From Gaiellaceae bacterium (GTDB lineage: Bacteria > Actinomycetota > Thermoleophilia > Gaiellales > Gaiellaceae), in NCBI GenBank assembly GCA_026002995.1, contig BPGK01000001.1, positions 1,736,001 through 1,800,000 on the forward strand: a stretch of DNA of 64,000 nucleotides. Reading direction: 5' to 3'. Positions 27,803-34,561 of this stretch are shown here, one piece after another. The translations under genes and the position numbers were made by a program. Numbering within the stretch: the stretch's first letter is position 1; each line of letters opens with the position of its first letter. The notes beneath the pieces are model-generated. The model did not search any database and was not told where the DNA came from. It saw only the letters and a program-made list of their open reading frames with translations.

Positions 27803-28243
27803 TCAGTCATCGGACGACCGGAGAGCCTTCGCCATTGCCGACACGCACTTGCCGAAGGCGTTCGCCTTGTTCGGGTTCGTCCCGTACTTGTTCCTGAAGG
27901 CTTCGACGCCCATCGACGCGAGCTCGGCCTTGCACTTCTTCGCAGCGTTCTCCTTTGCCTCTCGCGCCTTGCGCTGCTCCTTGGACTTGGCCGACACGCA
28001 CTTGCCGAAGGCGTTCGCCTTGTTCGGGTTCGTCCCGTACTTGTTCCTGAAGGCTTCGACGCCCATGGACTGGCGCTCGGCGCGGCACGCGATGTCCGGG
28101 CTCACGCCCGTCCCTTGTTGCTGGCTCTGCGCCGTCTGGCCGGCGCCGGTGGTGTTGGGCGCCCCCTTGCCCTCCGGCGGGGCCGCATAGGCCGCCGGAC
28201 TGGAGAAGGCGACGAGCACCGCAATGACGACGAGCTTCTTCAT
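27803..28243 (-). CDS. Small secreted protein with a duplicated 27-residue motif
   Basis: ATG 28243 is chosen because AAGGAGA precedes it by about seven bases and a signal peptide follows (MKKLVVIAVLVAFSSPAAYA). The mature protein is about 126 residues and holds two copies of a motif starting SMGVEAFRNKYGTN and ending NAFGKCVSA, separated by a Lys/Glu-rich linker. The copies are almost identical at DNA level (about 27846-27912 and 28005-28071). Each copy is preceded by another Cys (ACRAERQ, KCKAELA), so each unit may close one disulphide. Similar motifs occur, from memory, in uncharacterised secreted proteins of Thermoleophilia. The function is unknown. Confidence 0.82.
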   Translation of the reverse strand: MKKLVVIAVLVAFSSPAAYAAPPEGKGAPNTTGAGQTAQSQQQGTGVSPDIACRAERQSMGVEAFRNKYGTNPNKANAFGKCVSAKSKEQRKAREAKENAAKKCKAELASMGVEAFRNKYGTNPNKANAFGKCVSAMAKALRSSDD

Positions 28244-28398: not shown

Positions 28399-29778
28399 AT
28401 GGCATCCACCGAGACCGAGCGGGACGCCGCACACGCCCTCGACAACCTCTTCCGGGCACACGGCGCGCGGGTCTACCGCTACTCACTCGCCGTGCTCGGA
28501 AACCACGCGGACGCAGAGGACGTCACGCAGACGACGTTCCTCAGCGCCTACCGCGCGCTCGAGCGAGGCGTCCGCCCGCGGAAGCCCGAGAGCTGGCTGC
28601 TCACGATCGCGAGCAACGCCATCAAGCAGCGGTACCGTCAGGAGAGCGCCCGCCCCCGCCAGGTCGAGCTCGACGACGAGGTCGCCGGAGTCGCACCCGA
28701 GGAGGACGGGCCGACGGTGGGTGAGCTGCTCGCGGCGCTCGCGAAGATCCCGCCGCAGCAGCGCCAGGCGATCGTGCTCCGCGAGTTCGAGGGCCGCTCG
28801 TACGCCGAGATCGCCGAGATCCTCGGGGTGACACACTCCGCGCTCGAGACGCTCCTCTTCCGTGCGCGGCGATCGCTCGCCGAAGAGCTGGAGGCGCAGC
28901 TCACCTGCACGGAGGCTCAGCTCGCGATCTCTCGCGCCGCCGACGAGCGGCTCGGACGCAAGGAGCGCAGGCGCCTCCGCGAGCACCTGGGCGAGTGTCC
29001 GGACTGCGCCCGCTTCGCGCGCCTCCAGCAGCGACACCGCCGTGCGCTGAAAGGCCTGCTCCTCCTCCCCGTGCCCGTTTCGCTGAGCCTCGTGCGCGGG
29101 ATCGAAGGCAGCGCTGCCGCCGCGACGGTGCCTGCCACGGCGACCGCCGCCGCGACCGCCTCCACCGCGAGCGTCGTCGCCGTCGGCGTCGGCACGGTCT
29201 CGACCGGGACGGGCGCGGGCGCGGCGGGCAGCAGCCTCTTCGCGGGGGGCCTCGCGCTGAAGGCGGCCGCCGTGGTGAGCGCGGCCGCCGTGACTGGCGG
29301 GGTCGCAGTCACCGGCTCCACCGAGAGAGTCGCGCCGGGGCGACGCGCACCCGTTCCGACGGTGCAGACGCCGAAGGCGACCCTCGGCACGGTGTCGTCG
29401 ACGGCGAGGGCGAACGGCTCGGCTCGCTCCGCGGCGAGCACGCGGGGGGCTGAGAGGCGCCTCGTCGAGCGACCGCCGAGGGCAACCCCGCCCTCCCACT
29501 CGCGGGGAGACGCCGCCGGGACTCGCTCGCAGGGAGCGGGGCGCGCGGGAGCGCCCGCCGCTGCGACTCGTTCGGAGACGCGTCCGCGCACAAACGCGGG
29601 CTCCTCCGGGCCGGCAGCGACGGCCCGGTCGCGCGCGAGGTCGGAGACGCCCGCGGCGACAGCGCAGTCGAAGTGGCCGACACGTGACCCGAAGGCGACC
29701 CGAGGTGTGTCCGAGCGAAGGTCGGCCGGACGGGCACAACAGCGCGTTCGAGCCGGTCGCGACGAGTCCGGCGCGTAA
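28399..29778 (+). CDS. ECF sigma factor with fused zinc-finger and membrane tail
   Basis: A 459-residue protein. Residues 10-165 form an ECF sigma-70 factor: region 2 (LFRAHGARVYRYSLAVLG, DAEDVTQTTFLSAYRAL) and region 4 (LAKIPPQQRQAIVLREFEGR, YAEIAEILGVTHSALETLLFRARRSL). Residues 168-205 carry a zf-HC2-like anti-sigma zinc finger (CTEAQLAISRAADERLG, then LREHLGECPDCARF). An Ala/Thr/Val-rich region around 235-300 could span the membrane, and the rest is a low-complexity Ala/Arg/Thr tail. Sigma and anti-sigma functions thus seem joined in one chain, giving an intrinsically restrained regulator. The TAA stop is also the first three bases of a repeat element. It is divergent from the repeat-protein gene. 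Confidence 0.88.
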   Translation: MASTETERDAAHALDNLFRAHGARVYRYSLAVLGNHADAEDVTQTTFLSAYRALERGVRPRKPESWLLTIASNAIKQRYRQESARPRQVELDDEVAGVAPEEDGPTVGELLAALAKIPPQQRQAIVLREFEGRSYAEIAEILGVTHSALETLLFRARRSLAEELEAQLTCTEAQLAISRAADERLGRKERRRLREHLGECPDCARFARLQQRHRRALKGLLLLPVPVSLSLVRGIEGSAAAATVPATATAAATASTASVVAVGVGTVSTGTGAGAAGSSLFAGGLALKAAAVVSAAAVTGGVAVTGSTERVAPGRRAPVPTVQTPKATLGTVSSTARANGSARSAASTRGAERRLVERPPRATPPSHSRGDAAGTRSQGAGRAGAPAAATRSETRPRTNAGSSGPAATARSRARSETPAATAQSKWPTRDPKATRGVSERRSAGRAQQRVRAGRDESGA

Positions 29779-29944
29779 GAACTCGCATCGGAATGACGCT
29801 TCGCTGCCGGGGCGCTCCGGACGAGTGCGAAGCGAGGACGCAGGGAGCCCCGATCTGAGACATATCGGGGCGACCGAGGACGAGGCAGCGTGCCGTCCGG
29901 TGCGTTCCGGCGGCACACGGCTTCATCTAGATCCGAGCTCTGAG
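29776..29944. repeat. Palindromic element copy 1 with 96-bp internal insertion
   Basis: Outer halves 29776-29810 (starts TAAGAACTCGCATCGGAATG) and 29907-29943 (contains CCGGCGGCACACGGCTTCAT) match the two halves of the compact element at 33841-33913, in the same orientation. Between them lie 96 extra bases that hold a 7-bp hairpin (29848-29854 with 29864-29870). The left end supplies the TAA stop of the sigma-factor gene. It resembles a REP/MITE-type element. No gene is seen in 29779-30030. Confidence 0.65.
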
Positions 29945-30030
29945 CCTGCGGCGCTCACCTTGACGGTGCGCCACCCGACCCTCGTTCGAGGGACGCCTCG
30001 CCGAGTGGTACTGCCGATTCAGTACGCGAG

Positions 30031-30591
30031 ATGCGGCTCGTCCTGCTCGCCTTCGCCCTCGCGCTCCTCGCCTGGCTTCCCGCGGCCGCCCAGGCACGGT
30101 CCGGGGAGCGGCCACGCGACGTCGAGCGGCGAGCGGAGCTCGAGCGTGAGGTTCTCCAGGAGCTCAACCGGGTTCGCTCGGCGCGGGGCCTGACACCGCT
30201 CCGCGTGGCGGCGGGGCTGCGCGCCGCCGCGTTCGCGCACTCCGAGACGATGGTCGTCGAGGGCTTCTTCTCGCACACGAGGCCGGATGGCACGCCGTTC
30301 CACGAGCGGATTCGACGCTTCTACACGAGACGGGGCTGGAGTTCCTGGTCGGTCGGAGAGACCCTCTACGCAGCGAGCGGCACGCAACACGCTCGCGCGA
30401 TCGTCGCCTCGTGGCTCGCATCTCCCCCGCACCGCGAGATCATCCTCGCGCCAGGCTGGCGCGACGCGGGCATCGGCGTCGCCTACCGGTCGTCGGCACC
30501 GGGAGTGTTCGGGGGTAGGGAGACGCTCGTCGTCACGGCTGCCTTCGGGATCCGCGAGAGCCGTGTCCCGGTCGCCCGGCTGAACTCCTGA
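30031..30591 (+). CDS. Secreted CAP/SCP-domain protein
   Basis: A 186-residue protein with a signal peptide (MRLVLLAFALALLAWLPAAAQA) and a CAP domain covering the rest. Typical CAP features include EVLQELNRVRSARGLTPLRV, AAAFAHSETMVVEGFFSHTRPDG and WSVGETLYA, then AIVASWLASPPHREIIL and the last strand GVAYRSS. The His of FSHT and the His of PPHREI line the usual CAP cavity. Bacterial members are secreted and of unknown role. It stands alone, upstream of a convergent DUF4314-like gene. Confidence 0.92.
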   Translation: MRLVLLAFALALLAWLPAAAQARSGERPRDVERRAELEREVLQELNRVRSARGLTPLRVAAGLRAAAFAHSETMVVEGFFSHTRPDGTPFHERIRRFYTRRGWSSWSVGETLYAASGTQHARAIVASWLASPPHREIILAPGWRDAGIGVAYRSSAPGVFGGRETLVVTAAFGIRESRVPVARLNS

Positions 30592-30612
30592 CGCGTCGCC
30601 TGCGAGGCGGCG

Positions 30613-30879
30613 CTATGCAGCCAGACGCTGGAACGGAGTCGAGTCGGGATCGATCGCAACCGTCAGGCCGCGATCCCATTCGACGATGATCTGACCGTGC
30701 TCGCCGATGGCGTTGACGACGCCGCGGTCGCCCGCGCGCAGCCCGTGCTCTCCGGCGAGGTCGCCGATGAGCTCGATTCTCGACCCGATCGACACGCCCG
30801 CGCGGATGCGGGCGGCGAGGAGACGTGCACCGTTGGCGTCCATGGGACGAGGTATCGGCTTCGCCGGAGCCCGCCGCAT
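30613..30879 (-). CDS. DUF4314-like small protein
   Basis: An 88-residue protein. Its core, IGSRIELIGDLAGEHGLRAGDRGVVNAIGEHGQIIVEWDRGLTVAI, has the SH3-like beta pattern of DUF4314 (RIELI, a GDRGVV turn, GQIIVEWD and a closing hydrophobic strand). DUF4314 proteins are small, often linked to phages or mobile DNA, and of unknown function. The assignment is by pattern only. The first 18 residues are basic, and the start could be ATG 30843 instead of 30879. Confidence 0.68.
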   Translation of the reverse strand: MRRAPAKPIPRPMDANGARLLAARIRAGVSIGSRIELIGDLAGEHGLRAGDRGVVNAIGEHGQIIVEWDRGLTVAIDPDSTPFQRLAA

Positions 30880-31007
30880 CCCTCCTCCGGAGGAGTCGGG
30901 CAGGATACGGAGATGCGCCGGAGAATTCAGCCGGTGCCGGCGGGGCGCTCCGAATTCGACGGCTTAGGAACGGCCCGCCGGCCCCGTCGACGTCGAGGAT
31001 CGGCACC

Positions 31008-31682
31008 GTGACGCGTCCAGAGCGGCTCTCCTACGACGACCCGGCCCCGCGCCGAGCGGGCTTCGTCGGGGGAATCGTACGGAGGCTCCGAGGCATGCGC
31101 CCCGACCCGGAGGAGCGCCTCCACGAGCTCGTCGAAGAGCACCGCCGCGAGCTCGCCGAGCGCACGCGTCGGTTCGAGGAGACGCTCACCGAGCTCGAGC
31201 GGCGGGAGCGGCTGCTCGCAGACTCGCGCGCGTCGGTGGAGCGGATGCTCAGGCTCGGCACGAGAGAGCTCGACGCCCGTGAAGAGGATCTCGCGCGGCT
31301 CCTTCGCGAGCTGGCAGAGCGCGAGGAGCGCGTCCGGGCGCAGGAGGACGAGCTCACCCGACGGCGCAGCGAGCTCGGCGCGGTCGAGCTCAGACAGCTC
31401 CGGCTCGAGCAGCGCGAGCGCGCGCTCGTCGAGCGCGAGCGGCGGCTCGAGGAGGCGGAGCGGCGCGCGGAGAGCTCCGCCCGGCAGGGGGCGGACGAGA
31501 CGCCGACGTCGGTGACGCTCGCCTTTCTCCCCGGTCGCCGCTACGAGCTCCGCGAGATCGAGCCGACCGAGGTCGTGGCCGGCGAAGCGCTCGTCCTCGA
31601 TGGCGCATCGTATGCGGTCGCTCGGGTCGGCCCGTCGCCGCTCCCCGGAGATCGGCGGCGCTGCGCCTACCTCCTTCCCTGA
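31008..31682 (+). CDS. Coiled-coil protein with a C-terminal beta domain
   Basis: GTG 31008, preceded by GAGGAT, gives 224 residues; an upstream extension would overlap the DUF4314 gene. Residues 35-160 are an almost uninterrupted charged coiled coil (Arg, Glu, Leu heptads such as LHELVEEHRRELAERTRRFEE). Residues 165-224 form a compact beta region (VTLAFLPGRRYELREIEPTEVVAGEALVLDG) that may bind a partner. No transmembrane segment is visible. The family is not recognised. It is convergent with the diguanylate cyclase gene 18 bp away. Confidence 0.75.
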   Translation: MTRPERLSYDDPAPRRAGFVGGIVRRLRGMRPDPEERLHELVEEHRRELAERTRRFEETLTELERRERLLADSRASVERMLRLGTRELDAREEDLARLLRELAEREERVRAQEDELTRRRSELGAVELRQLRLEQRERALVERERRLEEAERRAESSARQGADETPTSVTLAFLPGRRYELREIEPTEVVAGEALVLDGASYAVARVGPSPLPGDRRRCAYLLP

Positions 31683-31700
31683 GCTCGCCGAGTGGCCGAC

Positions 31701-33791
31701 TCAGCGCGTCCGCGGCGCGACCGCGTCCGGCGGGAGCTCGTAGCGCGGCGGCAGGCGGTCGGCGGGAGCGTCGGGCCCGAGCTCGCCGAGCCGGCGCTCC
31801 GCGCTCTCGACGAGGAAGCGAGCGAGCGCGACGTCGTCGTCCGTGAAGCGCCGCAGCCGCATCTCGTAGACCTCGACGAGGCCCCACGGCTCACCGCCGA
31901 CGCGCAACGGCAGCATGAGCAGCGCGTTCATGCTCAGCTCGCGCAGGATGAACGCCTCCGCGGGGTCGACCTCGGCGTCGACGAGCGACATCGCCCGAGG
32001 CTCGCCGGTGCGGAGCACCTCCTCGGTCAGCGGGAAGTCGGCGATGCGGTAGGCGGCTTGCGGCCCGAGGCTGACGTCTCGGAGCGCGTGGCCCGAGGCG
32101 TCCACGAGGTACTCGCCCTCGATCCGCGAAGCGAGACACCCGGTCGCGCCGACGACGAACACGAGTGACTTGCAGAGCCGCTTGCAGACCCCCTCCGAGG
32201 TCTGCTCGCCCGCGATCGCGCGCGTCGCTTCGAGCGCCTCGGCGAGCACGGAGCCATCGCTGCGCAACCTGCTCGCCCGCCGGTCGCGACCCGCGCGCGC
32301 CGGCGTCGGCGCCGCGGCCACGATCGTCGCGCCGAGGACGTCGCGGAACGACGCGATCCGGCCTTTTCCCTGGTTCTTGGCCGCGTAGAGAGCTTGGTCG
32401 GCGGCCCGGATGAGCTCCGTCGCGCCACCCCCGTCGAACGGGAAGGACGAGATGCCGGCGCTGATCTCGAGCGGGAAGCCGGCGTCCGTCATGCCCTCCA
32501 CGAGCGACTGGCGCAGGCGACCTCCGACCGTCTGCGCCGCGTCCGCCCCGATCTCCGGAAACATGACGACGAACTCGTCGCCGCCGAGGCGGGCGGCGAC
32601 AGCGCCTGCAGGCAGCCCGCGCGCGAGCTGCTCCGCGAGCTCGACGAGGAGGGCGTCGCCGAACTCGTGACCGGCGCGGTCGTTGATCTGCTTGAAGTCG
32701 TCGCAGTCGATGACCATGAGGCTGAGCGGCATCCGCCGCCCGGACATCTCGGCAAGCGCGGCGTCGAGCCGCTCCTCGAAGCCGCGCCGGTTGAGGATGC
32801 CGGTGAGGGGATCCGTCTCGGCGCTCTCGCGCTCGCGGCGCAGCGTGAGGGCTGCGTCGAGCGTGGCGGCGACGTGAGCTGCGAGCAGCGTCGCGGTGTC
32901 GAGCTGGGTCGTCGCCACCTCGAGGTCGGAGGAGCCGAGCCCGACGAGCGCGCCGAGATCCTCCCCGTTCGCCCGCAGCGGCAGCCAGACGATCGATCCC
33001 GCCCGCCCCCGCGGTCCGCCGCCGAGCACATGGCAGACGACGGAGCGGTCGACGAGCGAGCGAGCGCCCTCGAGCTCGGCGCTCGAGAGTGGCGGCCGCC
33101 CGCCTGCGGCCCGCCAGGACGCGCGCTCCACGGGATGATCGTTCTCGTCCCAGAGGACGACTTGGCTGGCCTCGAGCGGCACCACGCGGGCGAGTGTCGC
33201 CGCGGCGAGCGCCGCTATCTCGTCGGGGTCGCGGAGGCCGCTGATGTAGACGAAGAGACGAGTGAGGGCGGCGAGATCGAGCAAACGGGCGGCCGCCAGC
33301 CCAGCGACGCGGGGCGCGAGCGCCACCGCCAGCGGCTCGAGCCGCGTCGGCGCGTCGGGGGGAAGGACGTGCTCCGACTCGAGGTTGAGCGCCCCAATCA
33401 CCGCGCCGCCCACCTCGAGCGGGAGCGTGACCTCGGAGACGAGCCCCGGCACCGCCTCGATGTAGTCTGGATCCGCGCGAACGTCCGTTACGAACTGCGC
33501 CTCGCCGAGCCGCAATGCCCGGCCGACGACACCCGTCTCGACGCTGATCCCGTCGGGGATGGTCGTGTACCCACGCTGCGCGACGAGCCAGAGCCGTCCG
33601 TGCTCGAGCACGAACGCCGAGACGTAGCTCCCTGGCAGCGCCTGCCAGAGCGTCCGCGCCGCGATCTCGAGCGCGAGCGCGTGATCCGGCTCCGCGGCGG
33701 CCGCCGCGGCCGCCTCCCGCGCCGCAGCCGCGAGGAGGCCCGAGTCGAGCGGGGCCGCGAGGGCGGGAGCCGATCGAAGCGCATCGGCCAT
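31701..33791 (-). CDS. GAF-GAF-GGDEF-GAF diguanylate cyclase
   Basis: A 696-residue soluble protein. Two GAF domains cover about residues 35-180 and 185-325, then a GGDEF domain about 330-500 (DPLTGILNRRGFEERLD, ARLGGDEFVVMFPEIG), then a third GAF domain about 520-670. The catalytic GGDEF motif is intact. No RxxD inhibitory site precedes it (AGAVAARLGGDEF), so product inhibition may be absent. It should make cyclic di-GMP in response to small ligands. A GAF domain after the GGDEF domain is uncommon. A GGDEF-EAL protein is encoded nearby at 34740-36215. Confidence 0.93.
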   Translation of the reverse strand: MADALRSAPALAAPLDSGLLAAAAREAAAAAAAEPDHALALEIAARTLWQALPGSYVSAFVLEHGRLWLVAQRGYTTIPDGISVETGVVGRALRLGEAQFVTDVRADPDYIEAVPGLVSEVTLPLEVGGAVIGALNLESEHVLPPDAPTRLEPLAVALAPRVAGLAAARLLDLAALTRLFVYISGLRDPDEIAALAAATLARVVPLEASQVVLWDENDHPVERASWRAAGGRPPLSSAELEGARSLVDRSVVCHVLGGGPRGRAGSIVWLPLRANGEDLGALVGLGSSDLEVATTQLDTATLLAAHVAATLDAALTLRRERESAETDPLTGILNRRGFEERLDAALAEMSGRRMPLSLMVIDCDDFKQINDRAGHEFGDALLVELAEQLARGLPAGAVAARLGGDEFVVMFPEIGADAAQTVGGRLRQSLVEGMTDAGFPLEISAGISSFPFDGGGATELIRAADQALYAAKNQGKGRIASFRDVLGATIVAAAPTPARAGRDRRASRLRSDGSVLAEALEATRAIAGEQTSEGVCKRLCKSLVFVVGATGCLASRIEGEYLVDASGHALRDVSLGPQAAYRIADFPLTEEVLRTGEPRAMSLVDAEVDPAEAFILRELSMNALLMLPLRVGGEPWGLVEVYEMRLRRFTDDDVALARFLVESAERRLGELGPDAPADRLPPRYELPPDAVAPRTR

Positions 33792-33840
33792 GCTCGAAGC
33801 ATCGGCTCGCCAGGGCGTGCCCTTGAGGACTCAGCAGGCC

Positions 33841-33913
33841 TCAGAACTCGAATCGGAATGACGATTCGTTGCCGGTCCGGCGGCACACGGCTTCATTTCG
33901 ATTCGAGTTCTTA
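33841..33913. repeat. Palindromic element copy 2 (compact form)
   Basis: The ends AGAACTCGAATCGGAATGA and TCATTTCGATTCGAGTTCT are inverted repeats of 19 bp with one mismatch. The centre holds TGCCGGTCCGGCGGCA, itself a near palindrome, so the whole 73 bp can fold into one long hairpin. On the minus strand it begins TAAGAACTCG and supplies the TAA stop of the prepilin peptidase gene. It matches the element at 29776-29944. Confidence 0.72.
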
Positions 33914-34561
33914 GACGCCGAGATCCGTGTACCAGTCCCAGATCTCGGCGCCGAAGAAGAGGGCGAGCAGCGCGCCGAGCGCGAGGAAGGGCCCGAGCGG
34001 GATCGCCTGTCTGCGCGCCGCCCCGCCGTGTCGGAGCAGGAGCGCGAGCGCGGGGACGAACGCCGCGAAGAATCCGAGGAAGAGCGCGATCGCGACATGC
34101 GCTCCCAGACCCGCGCCGAGAAGCGCCGCGAGCTTGACGTCCCCCATCCCCATCCCCTTCGGGTAGACGAGGACGATGAGAAAGAGCACGAGGCCTGCGC
34201 CGAGCGCGCTCGCAACCCACTCGAGGCTCGGATCGTCGAGCGTCCGGAGCCCGAGGAGGAGCACGGTGCCGGGAAGGACGATGCGATCCGGGAGCAGGCG
34301 GTGCTCGAGATCCGTGCGGGTGAGGATCACGAGTAACCAGCAGAGCATCGCGGCCGCGAGGCCTTCGAGACCCAGGCCGAAGGCGAGCCCGCATGCCGCT
34401 CCGAAGCCGGCGGTGCCGAGAGCGACGAGCGGGAAGGCTCTCGAGAGGCCGGCGCGTCTCTGAAGGGGTGCCCCGATCGGGGCGTTCGTGGCGAGCTGGT
34501 CTGCGACCGGCGCGAGCACGAGCCCGGCGGCCAGAAAGACGAATCCCCCGCCGACGTCCAC
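33911..34561 (-). CDS. Prepilin peptidase (A24 family, short form)
   Basis: A 216-residue polytopic membrane protease. The two catalytic aspartates lie in RTDLEHRLLPDRIV (after the third or fourth helix) and in the GMGMGDVKLAALLG motif, the GxGD signature. There is no N-terminal methyltransferase domain with CxxC pairs, so it is the short CpaA/TadV-like form that cuts but may not methylate. It is the only A24 protease in the window and should process the three Flp pilins and the TadE-like protein encoded 18 kb away. The stop codon lies inside a palindromic element. Confidence 0.92.
   Translation of the reverse strand: MDVGGGFVFLAAGLVLAPVADQLATNAPIGAPLQRRAGLSRAFPLVALGTAGFGAACGLAFGLGLEGLAAAMLCWLLVILTRTDLEHRLLPDRIVLPGTVLLLGLRTLDDPSLEWVASALGAGLVLFLIVLVYPKGMGMGDVKLAALLGAGLGAHVAIALFLGFFAAFVPALALLLRHGGAARRQAIPLGPFLALGALLALFFGAEIWDWYTDLGV

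What the first reader, a model, noticed from the sequence alone, without database searches (positions are those of the whole stretch)
29776..33913. Dispersed palindromic element that supplies the stop codons of two genes
Copies at 29776-29944 and 33841-33913 share both halves in the same orientation. One has a 96-bp internal insertion with its own hairpin. In both cases the TAAGAACTCG end provides the TAA of the flanking gene (sigma factor on +, prepilin peptidase on -). This is a REP/MITE-like element with a fixed relation to gene ends, possibly a mobile terminator.
Basis: partly seen in the sequence, partly recalled or inferred. Interest (0 to 1): 0.57.

Follow-up and report, generated by a model that had tools for sequence, protein, structure and literature searches.

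The report
Stop-codon-landing mini-transposon with structured core
Two short hairpin-shaped DNA repeats in this bacterium are mini-transposons that land on stop-codon-like target sites, and the longer one belongs to a very large, apparently undescribed family whose folded middle is more conserved than its ends.

Summary
Both copies are MITEs with terminal inverted repeats (TIRs) like those of a 901-bp IS5-family insertion sequence elsewhere in the genome. They are flanked by TNA triplets, the IS1031-group target. TNA is always a stop codon on one strand, so insertion into a gene's own stop codon leaves the gene intact. Of 144 copies from relatives with both flanks, 87 have a neighbouring stop codon at the border; kind-A targets are enriched at stops 12-fold over other non-coding TNA sites. 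Autonomous IS copies do the same (6 of 12), and relatives carry the prepilin gene without the element.

The '96-bp insertion' is the normal interior; the short copy has lost it. That interior is a conserved core (AAGGACGCAGGGAGC-hairpin-GCGACYGAGGACGC) with covarying stems, tandem G.A mismatches and G.U>>A.C on one strand. It occurs in 95 of 103 family genomes, in Solirubrobacterales and in Nitrospirota, with at least 150 copies in one genome, under several unrelated TIRs. No Rfam or literature match was found. Why the core is conserved is unknown; a need for one folded strand in propagation is my best inference.

The parts
29776..29778 (+). left TNA flank (TAA), also the stop codon of ORF 28399-29778
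29779..29796 (+). left TIR of the long copy, GAACTCGCATCGGAATGA; 17 of 18 identical to the right end of the genome's IS5-family element
29779..29940 (+). long (full-form) element, 162 bp; folds as one nested hairpin, z = -5.25 for 29770-29950
   Evidence: CM match
29842..29901 (+). approximate conserved core: GCGAGGACGCAGGGAGC, covarying hairpin, GCGACCGAGGACGAGGCAGCG
29923..29940 (+). right TIR of the long copy, diverged (13 of 18 against either IS end)
29941..29943 (+). right TNA flank (TGA); not identical to the left flank
33841..33843 (.). left TNA flank (TCA) of the short copy
33844..33910 (+). short, core-less element, 67 bp; TIRs 16-17 of 18 identical to the IS left end
33911..33913 (-). 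right TNA flank (TTA), also the stop codon (TAA) of the - strand ORF 33911-34561

Best explanation
Both repeats are non-autonomous mobile elements (MITEs) moved in trans by IS5-family (IS1031-group-like) transposases, which cut at TNA (in practice often CTNAG) and duplicate it; a second kind targets CTAG. These targets always contain a stop codon on one or other strand, and in these GC-rich genomes insertion elsewhere usually breaks a gene. Insertion into a gene's own stop codon duplicates it and leaves the protein unchanged, so these insertions survive. 'Supplying the stop codon' is therefore a by-product of target choice plus survival (shown: position, target, shared ends, relatives without the element; inferred: the transposition itself). 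The long copy is the full form; the short one lost its interior. The interior is a conserved core that folds on one strand and is shared by elements with several unrelated TIRs across Thermoleophilia and beyond. Inferred: the folded strand, most likely as RNA, is needed for the element's propagation, and the core has repeatedly been combined with the ends of whichever IS5-type transposase is available.
For: Own genome: 901-bp element at 110863-111763 with PF13340 + PF01609 / NF033580 IS5 transposase in two overlapping frames, TTA on both sides, ends matching the MITE at up to 17 of 18. Published IS1031 group: 857 bp, 17-bp ends beginning GAAC, two ORFs with frameshift, 3-bp TNA repeats (PMC12016507, passage). 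IS ends like those of co-resident MITEs also in G009 and G022. Copies: 155 of 161 bounded, 154-174 bp; kind A 74 (26 with identical TNA on both sides), kind B 51 (8 with CTAG on both sides), 30 unassigned. Stop codon at the border in 87 of 144 (A 42 of 67, B 36 of 50, unassigned 9 of 27). Reconstructed targets of kind A: stop 29, intergenic 12, in gene 11, against control TNA sites stop 65, intergenic 318, in gene 1893; Fisher p 2e-12 for stop against intergenic. Relatives' prepilin gene without element in G003, G004, G005, G006, G007, G009; G010 has a kind-B element at the same gene's stop. Core: 24 of 39 pairs with changes on both sides, covariation 0.382 against 0.196 shuffled; G.T 513 against A.C 23 in 101 copies, 106 against 14 in columns at least 80% Watson-Crick. 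Spread.
Against: The flanking triplets of the two window copies are not identical (TAA/TGA, TCA/TTA), and only 34 of 125 assigned copies have identical flanks. In genome G527 only 11 of 62 copies lie on a stop codon and many flanks are not TNA. Several genomes rich in copies have no PF13340 transposase (only 22 of 103 genomes have one), and MITE ends do not match the resident IS in some genomes (e.g. G034, G068, G073; read by eye). The strand asymmetry is weaker in the alignment not fitted to the model (30 against 12, 12 columns against 6). There are no RNA expression or transposition data, and no strand bias relative to neighbouring genes in favour of an mRNA role.
Confidence: 0.85

Rival explanations
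1. Mobile transcription terminator or 3'-UTR element: selected at gene ends because the hairpin terminates or stabilises the upstream mRNA.
For: Hairpins are very stable (-41.4 kcal/mol short copy, -97.8 long copy) and lie right after stop codons; convergent gene pairs make up 43 of 144 contexts.
Against: No terminator-like site at the copies. Stop codons abut the antisense end at least as often as the sense end (43 against 27, p 0.07), whereas the fold is preserved on one strand. Autonomous IS copies show the same position.
Confidence: 0.08
2. Ordinary MITE family whose core is conserved only by recent common descent, and whose covariation comes from palindrome correction (template switching in the hairpin) rather than selection.
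For: High copy number and tandem and nested copies show vigorous turnover; palindromes are known to be corrected in this way (recalled).
Against: The unpaired core positions are 93-100% conserved in most columns while stems and TIRs vary freely, the same core is found in different classes and phyla under other ends, and correction should not favour G.T over A.C.
Confidence: 0.2
3. The core is a host structured RNA or regulatory element that IS5-type ends have captured repeatedly (a cargo useful to the cell).
For: Strong structure conservation under several TIRs.
Against: No copy was found that lacks transposon-like ends and sits at a conserved locus (not systematically searched); core-less elements persist, as in this window; no orientation preference towards transcription.
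Confidence: 0.1

Closest known systems
IS1031 group of the IS5 family (e.g. ISLrh, PMC12016507, passage read)
   Same: Two overlapping transposase ORFs, about 0.9 kb, ends beginning GAAC, TNA target with 3-bp repeat.
   Different: The window elements carry no transposase; the second kind targets CTAG, closer to IS5 proper (4-bp repeat, PMC11677980, passages).
CMITEs of Acropora corals (PMC2872659, passages read)
   Same: MITEs whose interior is more conserved than their TIRs, several different TIRs on one interior, tandem arrays.
   Different: Eukaryotic, piggyBac-related; no structured RNA-like core or stop-codon position in the passages read.
QMITE1/QMITE2 of Coxiella burnetii (PMC5896051, passages read)
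   Same: Bacterial MITEs with a conserved core and variable ends (QMITE1), strong hairpins, full-size and small forms (QMITE2), one case altering a gene's stop codon.
   Different: Described in one species; direct repeats of 7-9 bp (QMITE2, review PMC10969869); no phylum-wide core.
REP / GTAG- and CGTC-tagged palindromes (PMC3733652, passages read)
   Same: Dispersed palindromic repeats.
   Different: 20-40 bp with a tetranucleotide tag, RAYT tyrosine transposases for the GTAG type; here 162 bp, TIRs, DDE transposase.

Membership tests
MITE | short, non-coding, with terminal inverted repeats | tested here: met
   67 and 162 bp in the window; 154-174 bp with TIRs in 155 of 161 copies
MITE | TIRs shared with an autonomous element that can supply the transposase | tested here: met
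   own genome: three of four ends match an IS end at 16-17 of 18 bases; G009, G022 by eye; not met in some genomes
MITE | target-site duplication | tested here: inconclusive
   34 of 125 assigned copies identical on both sides; the window copies have TNA on all four sides but not identical
MITE | sites without the element in relatives | tested here: met
   prepilin gene in six relatives, sigma gene in G007; relatives are 60-68% identical in protein, so not base-exact empty sites
IS5 family, IS1031 group (the autonomous partner) | IS5 transposase, TNA 3-bp repeat, GA-starting ends | tested here: met
   NF033580, PF13340, PF01609; TNA on both sides of 11 of 12 IS copies inspected, L154 being of another type; no phylogenetic placement was made
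REP element | 20-40 bp hairpin with GTAG or CGTC tag and RAYT | tested here: not met
   length and TIRs differ; RAYT genes were not searched
intrinsic terminator | GC hairpin followed by a T run | tested here: not met
   no site at either copy in 29650-34050
known structured RNA family (Rfam 15) | covariance-model match at the gathering score | tested here: not met
   0 matches in the window; nothing credible at relaxed thresholds in the window stretch and seven loci

The most novel reading that the evidence does not exclude
A mobile, strand-specific structured nucleic-acid module with its own conserved tandem-G.A core exists throughout Thermoleophilia and sporadically in other phyla. It survives by repeatedly acquiring the terminal repeats of different IS5-type transposases, and it depends on the folded strand (RNA or single-stranded DNA) at some step of its propagation: a bacterial counterpart of a SINE-like or satellite-like parasite of transposases, landing on stop codons without damaging genes.
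Probability: 0.35. Interest if true: 0.85.

Novelty: new variant of a known kind. Interest (0 to 1): 0.64.

Why it matters
It gives a simple rule for why transposon debris sits on stop codons in GC-rich genomes: TNA and CTAG targets are stop codons. It also points to a large class of structured mobile DNA absent from Rfam (95 of 103 genomes of this family; at least 150 copies in one chromosome). Conservation of a folded interior over the recognition ends contradicts the usual picture of MITEs as decayed IS remnants defined by their TIRs, and it is testable with a transposition assay.

Tried and rejected
Rfam scans of the window and of seven loci gave no credible family. Replication-strand preference in G527: 72 + against 78 -, no switch along the chromosome (a script on positions typed from the 150 rows listed). 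Plasmid collection: no match to one element. Viral contigs: none for the core pattern. Orientation-specific insertion: the nested copies seen in G527 all have one orientation, but a single nested ancestor that was later copied explains this equally well, so I do not claim it. A kink-turn reading of the core was considered and dropped: the internal loops do not fit the 3-nt bulge layout (by eye, recalled definition). Literature: ten full-text searches found no description of this core or of a stop-codon rule for TNA elements; the library is open-access PMC only. Dropped rows: of 175 aligned matches, 165 were unique; 4 weak antisense duplicates were dropped, and 6 gave no boundary. The copies were mostly the best-scoring ones listed, so weak or decayed copies are under-represented.
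Full report
What is in the window. The two copies lie at 29779-29940 (162 bp) and 33844-33910 (67 bp), each between two TNA triplets: TAA/TGA and TCA/TTA. The halves match at 86-87%, far above chance. The short copy folds as one hairpin (-41.4 kcal/mol, z -7.1) and the long copy as a nested one (z -5.25). The left TAA of the long copy is the stop of ORF 28399-29778, and the right TTA of the short copy is the stop of the - strand ORF 33911-34561.

Source of the ends. A search of the window's own 2.62-Mb genome found the same ends about 0.9 kb apart at 110.9-111.8 kb. Between them lie two overlapping transposase frames matching PF13340 and PF01609, and NCBIfam's IS5 model NF033580. The element is 901 bp with TTA on both sides. 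Three of the four MITE ends match an IS end at 16-17 of 18 bases at best; the diverged right end of the long copy matches at 13. Length, ends beginning GAAC, split frame and TNA repeat agree with the IS1031 group as described in PMC12016507 (one passage read). Its TTA on the right is the stop codon of the ORF at L012:3265-4164, so the autonomous element itself shows the stop-codon position.

Why stop codons. TNA is TAA or TGA on one strand, and TTA or TCA (TAA or TGA on the other strand) otherwise; CTAG contains TAG on both strands. So every insertion carries a stop codon on some strand. To test more than this, I took copies from relatives, called genes with a codon-usage script, and located borders in 155 of 161 copies. 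The start of the left gene's stop codon lies at exactly -3 or -2 from the element in 44 of 151 copies with a left flank; the right gene's stop lies at +2 to +4 in 61 of 148. Per copy, 87 of 144 with both flanks have a stop codon at a border. After rebuilding the target, kind-A sites were stop 29, intergenic 12, in gene 11, against 65, 318 and 1893 for other TNA sites in the same flanks (Fisher p 2e-12 for stop against intergenic). For kind B (CTAG) the figures were stop 17, intergenic 2, in gene 3, against 10, 15 and 10 (p 0.001). Autonomous IS copies: 6 of 12. Against this, in genome G527 only 11 of 62 copies did so. I conclude that the relation is real in this family but follows from target and survival, not from a terminator role. 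No terminator-like site was found at the copies, and the element lies on either strand relative to the gene (43 against 27, p 0.07).

Sites without the element. In the same genus the prepilin-peptidase gene ends without the element in G003, G004, G005, G006, G007 and G009, and the sigma-type gene does so in G007. In G010 a full element of the other kind (TAG followed by GGAGGGCTTGGCGGAA) begins at the stop codon of the same prepilin gene: an independent insertion of an element with unrelated ends at the same gene end.

Which copy is normal. Relatives show the opposite: full elements are 154-174 bp, mostly 160-165, and the short copy lacks 95 bp of the interior.

The interior. A BLAST search with the long copy matched 88 of 103 genomes of the family, and the middle matched more widely than the ends. 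The aligned copies share AAGGACGCAGGGAGC, a hairpin of variable sequence, and GCGACYGAGGACGC. RNAalifold and counting on a named structure give 24 of 39 pairs changed on both sides in at least one copy (shuffled mean 11.2) and 93% of cells paired. The unpaired core can be drawn as three tandem G.A steps (by eye), with 93-100% conservation at most positions in 101 copies. One such position pair changes together: A/G 172, C/A 14, A/A 2, though the C/A copies may share one origin. G.T exceeds A.C 513 to 23, and 106 to 14 in columns that are at least 80% Watson-Crick. In the alignment not fitted to the model the strict figure is 30 to 12, so the size of the effect is uncertain, but its direction is the same. 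This says that one strand, the one with the G.A steps, is the folding strand.

Many ends, one core. The same core lies between ends beginning GAACTC/GAGCTC (TNA), GGAGGG..TTTGGCGGAA (CTAG), GTG..CAC (CTAG), CAGGCTGTTGAA and others. Two end types coexist in G527.

Spread. With a covariance model, 95 of 103 family genomes matched at E<=0.001, and 21 of 396 in an even sample of the phylum. Nearly all are Actinomycetota, including Gaiellaceae, Solirubrobacterales and Conexibacter sp.; a few are Nitrospirota MAGs and a MAG labelled Bacteriovoracaceae. A chosen set of nine of these genomes all matched, with at least 150 copies in the 4.6-Mb Thermoleophilia genome G527 (the listing stops at 150). No viral contig and no plasmid (one query) matched.

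Mechanism. Shown: position, target, ends, constant length, core structure, spread. Inferred: mobilisation in trans by IS5-type transposases; survival because stop-codon insertions are harmless; and a need for the folded strand in propagation. RNA is my first choice because G.U is tolerated, but folded single-stranded DNA is not excluded. Copies do not prefer the sense strand of neighbours, and replication direction shows no effect, so selection probably acts on active copies rather than through host mRNAs.

Relation to known systems. The nearest published parallel is the CMITE group of corals, with a conserved interior, different TIRs and tandem arrays (PMC2872659, passages). QMITEs of Coxiella include a conserved core with variable ends and one stop-codon case (PMC5896051, passages). 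The review PMC10969869 (passages) describes prokaryotic MITEs as mostly IS-derived and moved in trans; the term 'stop codon' does not occur in it. I found no description of this core in ten searches of the open-access library or in Rfam. I file the elements as MITEs of IS5-type transposases and rate the conserved-core superfamily as a new variant of a known kind.

Noticed in passing
G527 (loci L424, L425, L441; positions): Head-to-tail tandem copies of the element 163-167 bp apart, always in the same orientation; one array in L441 has two full units and a partial third; L315 has a similar pair.
   Followed up: partly
L424, L427, L430, L433, L437, L440: Elements nested inside other elements at one site of the core (GGCAA/GGACGC), all in the same orientation; L439 has a small insertion at the same site that looks like an excision footprint.
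   Followed up: partly
L385 (G010): A kind-B element at the stop codon of the prepilin-peptidase relative, the same gene end that carries the kind-A short copy in the window.
   Followed up: yes
L271, L348 (Nitrospirota MAGs); L328, L353, L374 (MAG labelled Bacteriovoracaceae): The core with ends like GGCTGTTGAAAAAG or related ones outside Actinomycetota; horizontal transfer, old descent or mislabelled MAGs not separated.
   Followed up: no
G000:C1:877544-877762: A second, broken IS5-family transposase remnant in the window's genome (stops inside).
   Followed up: no
window 30932-30986: Another strong inverted repeat (23-bp arms, 9-nt loop, 83% complementary) between short ORFs, unrelated by eye to the elements.
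   Followed up: no
window 27803-28243, - strand: Small predicted protein with two near-identical repeats (GVEAFRNKYGTNPNKANAFGKCVSA), read.
   Followed up: no
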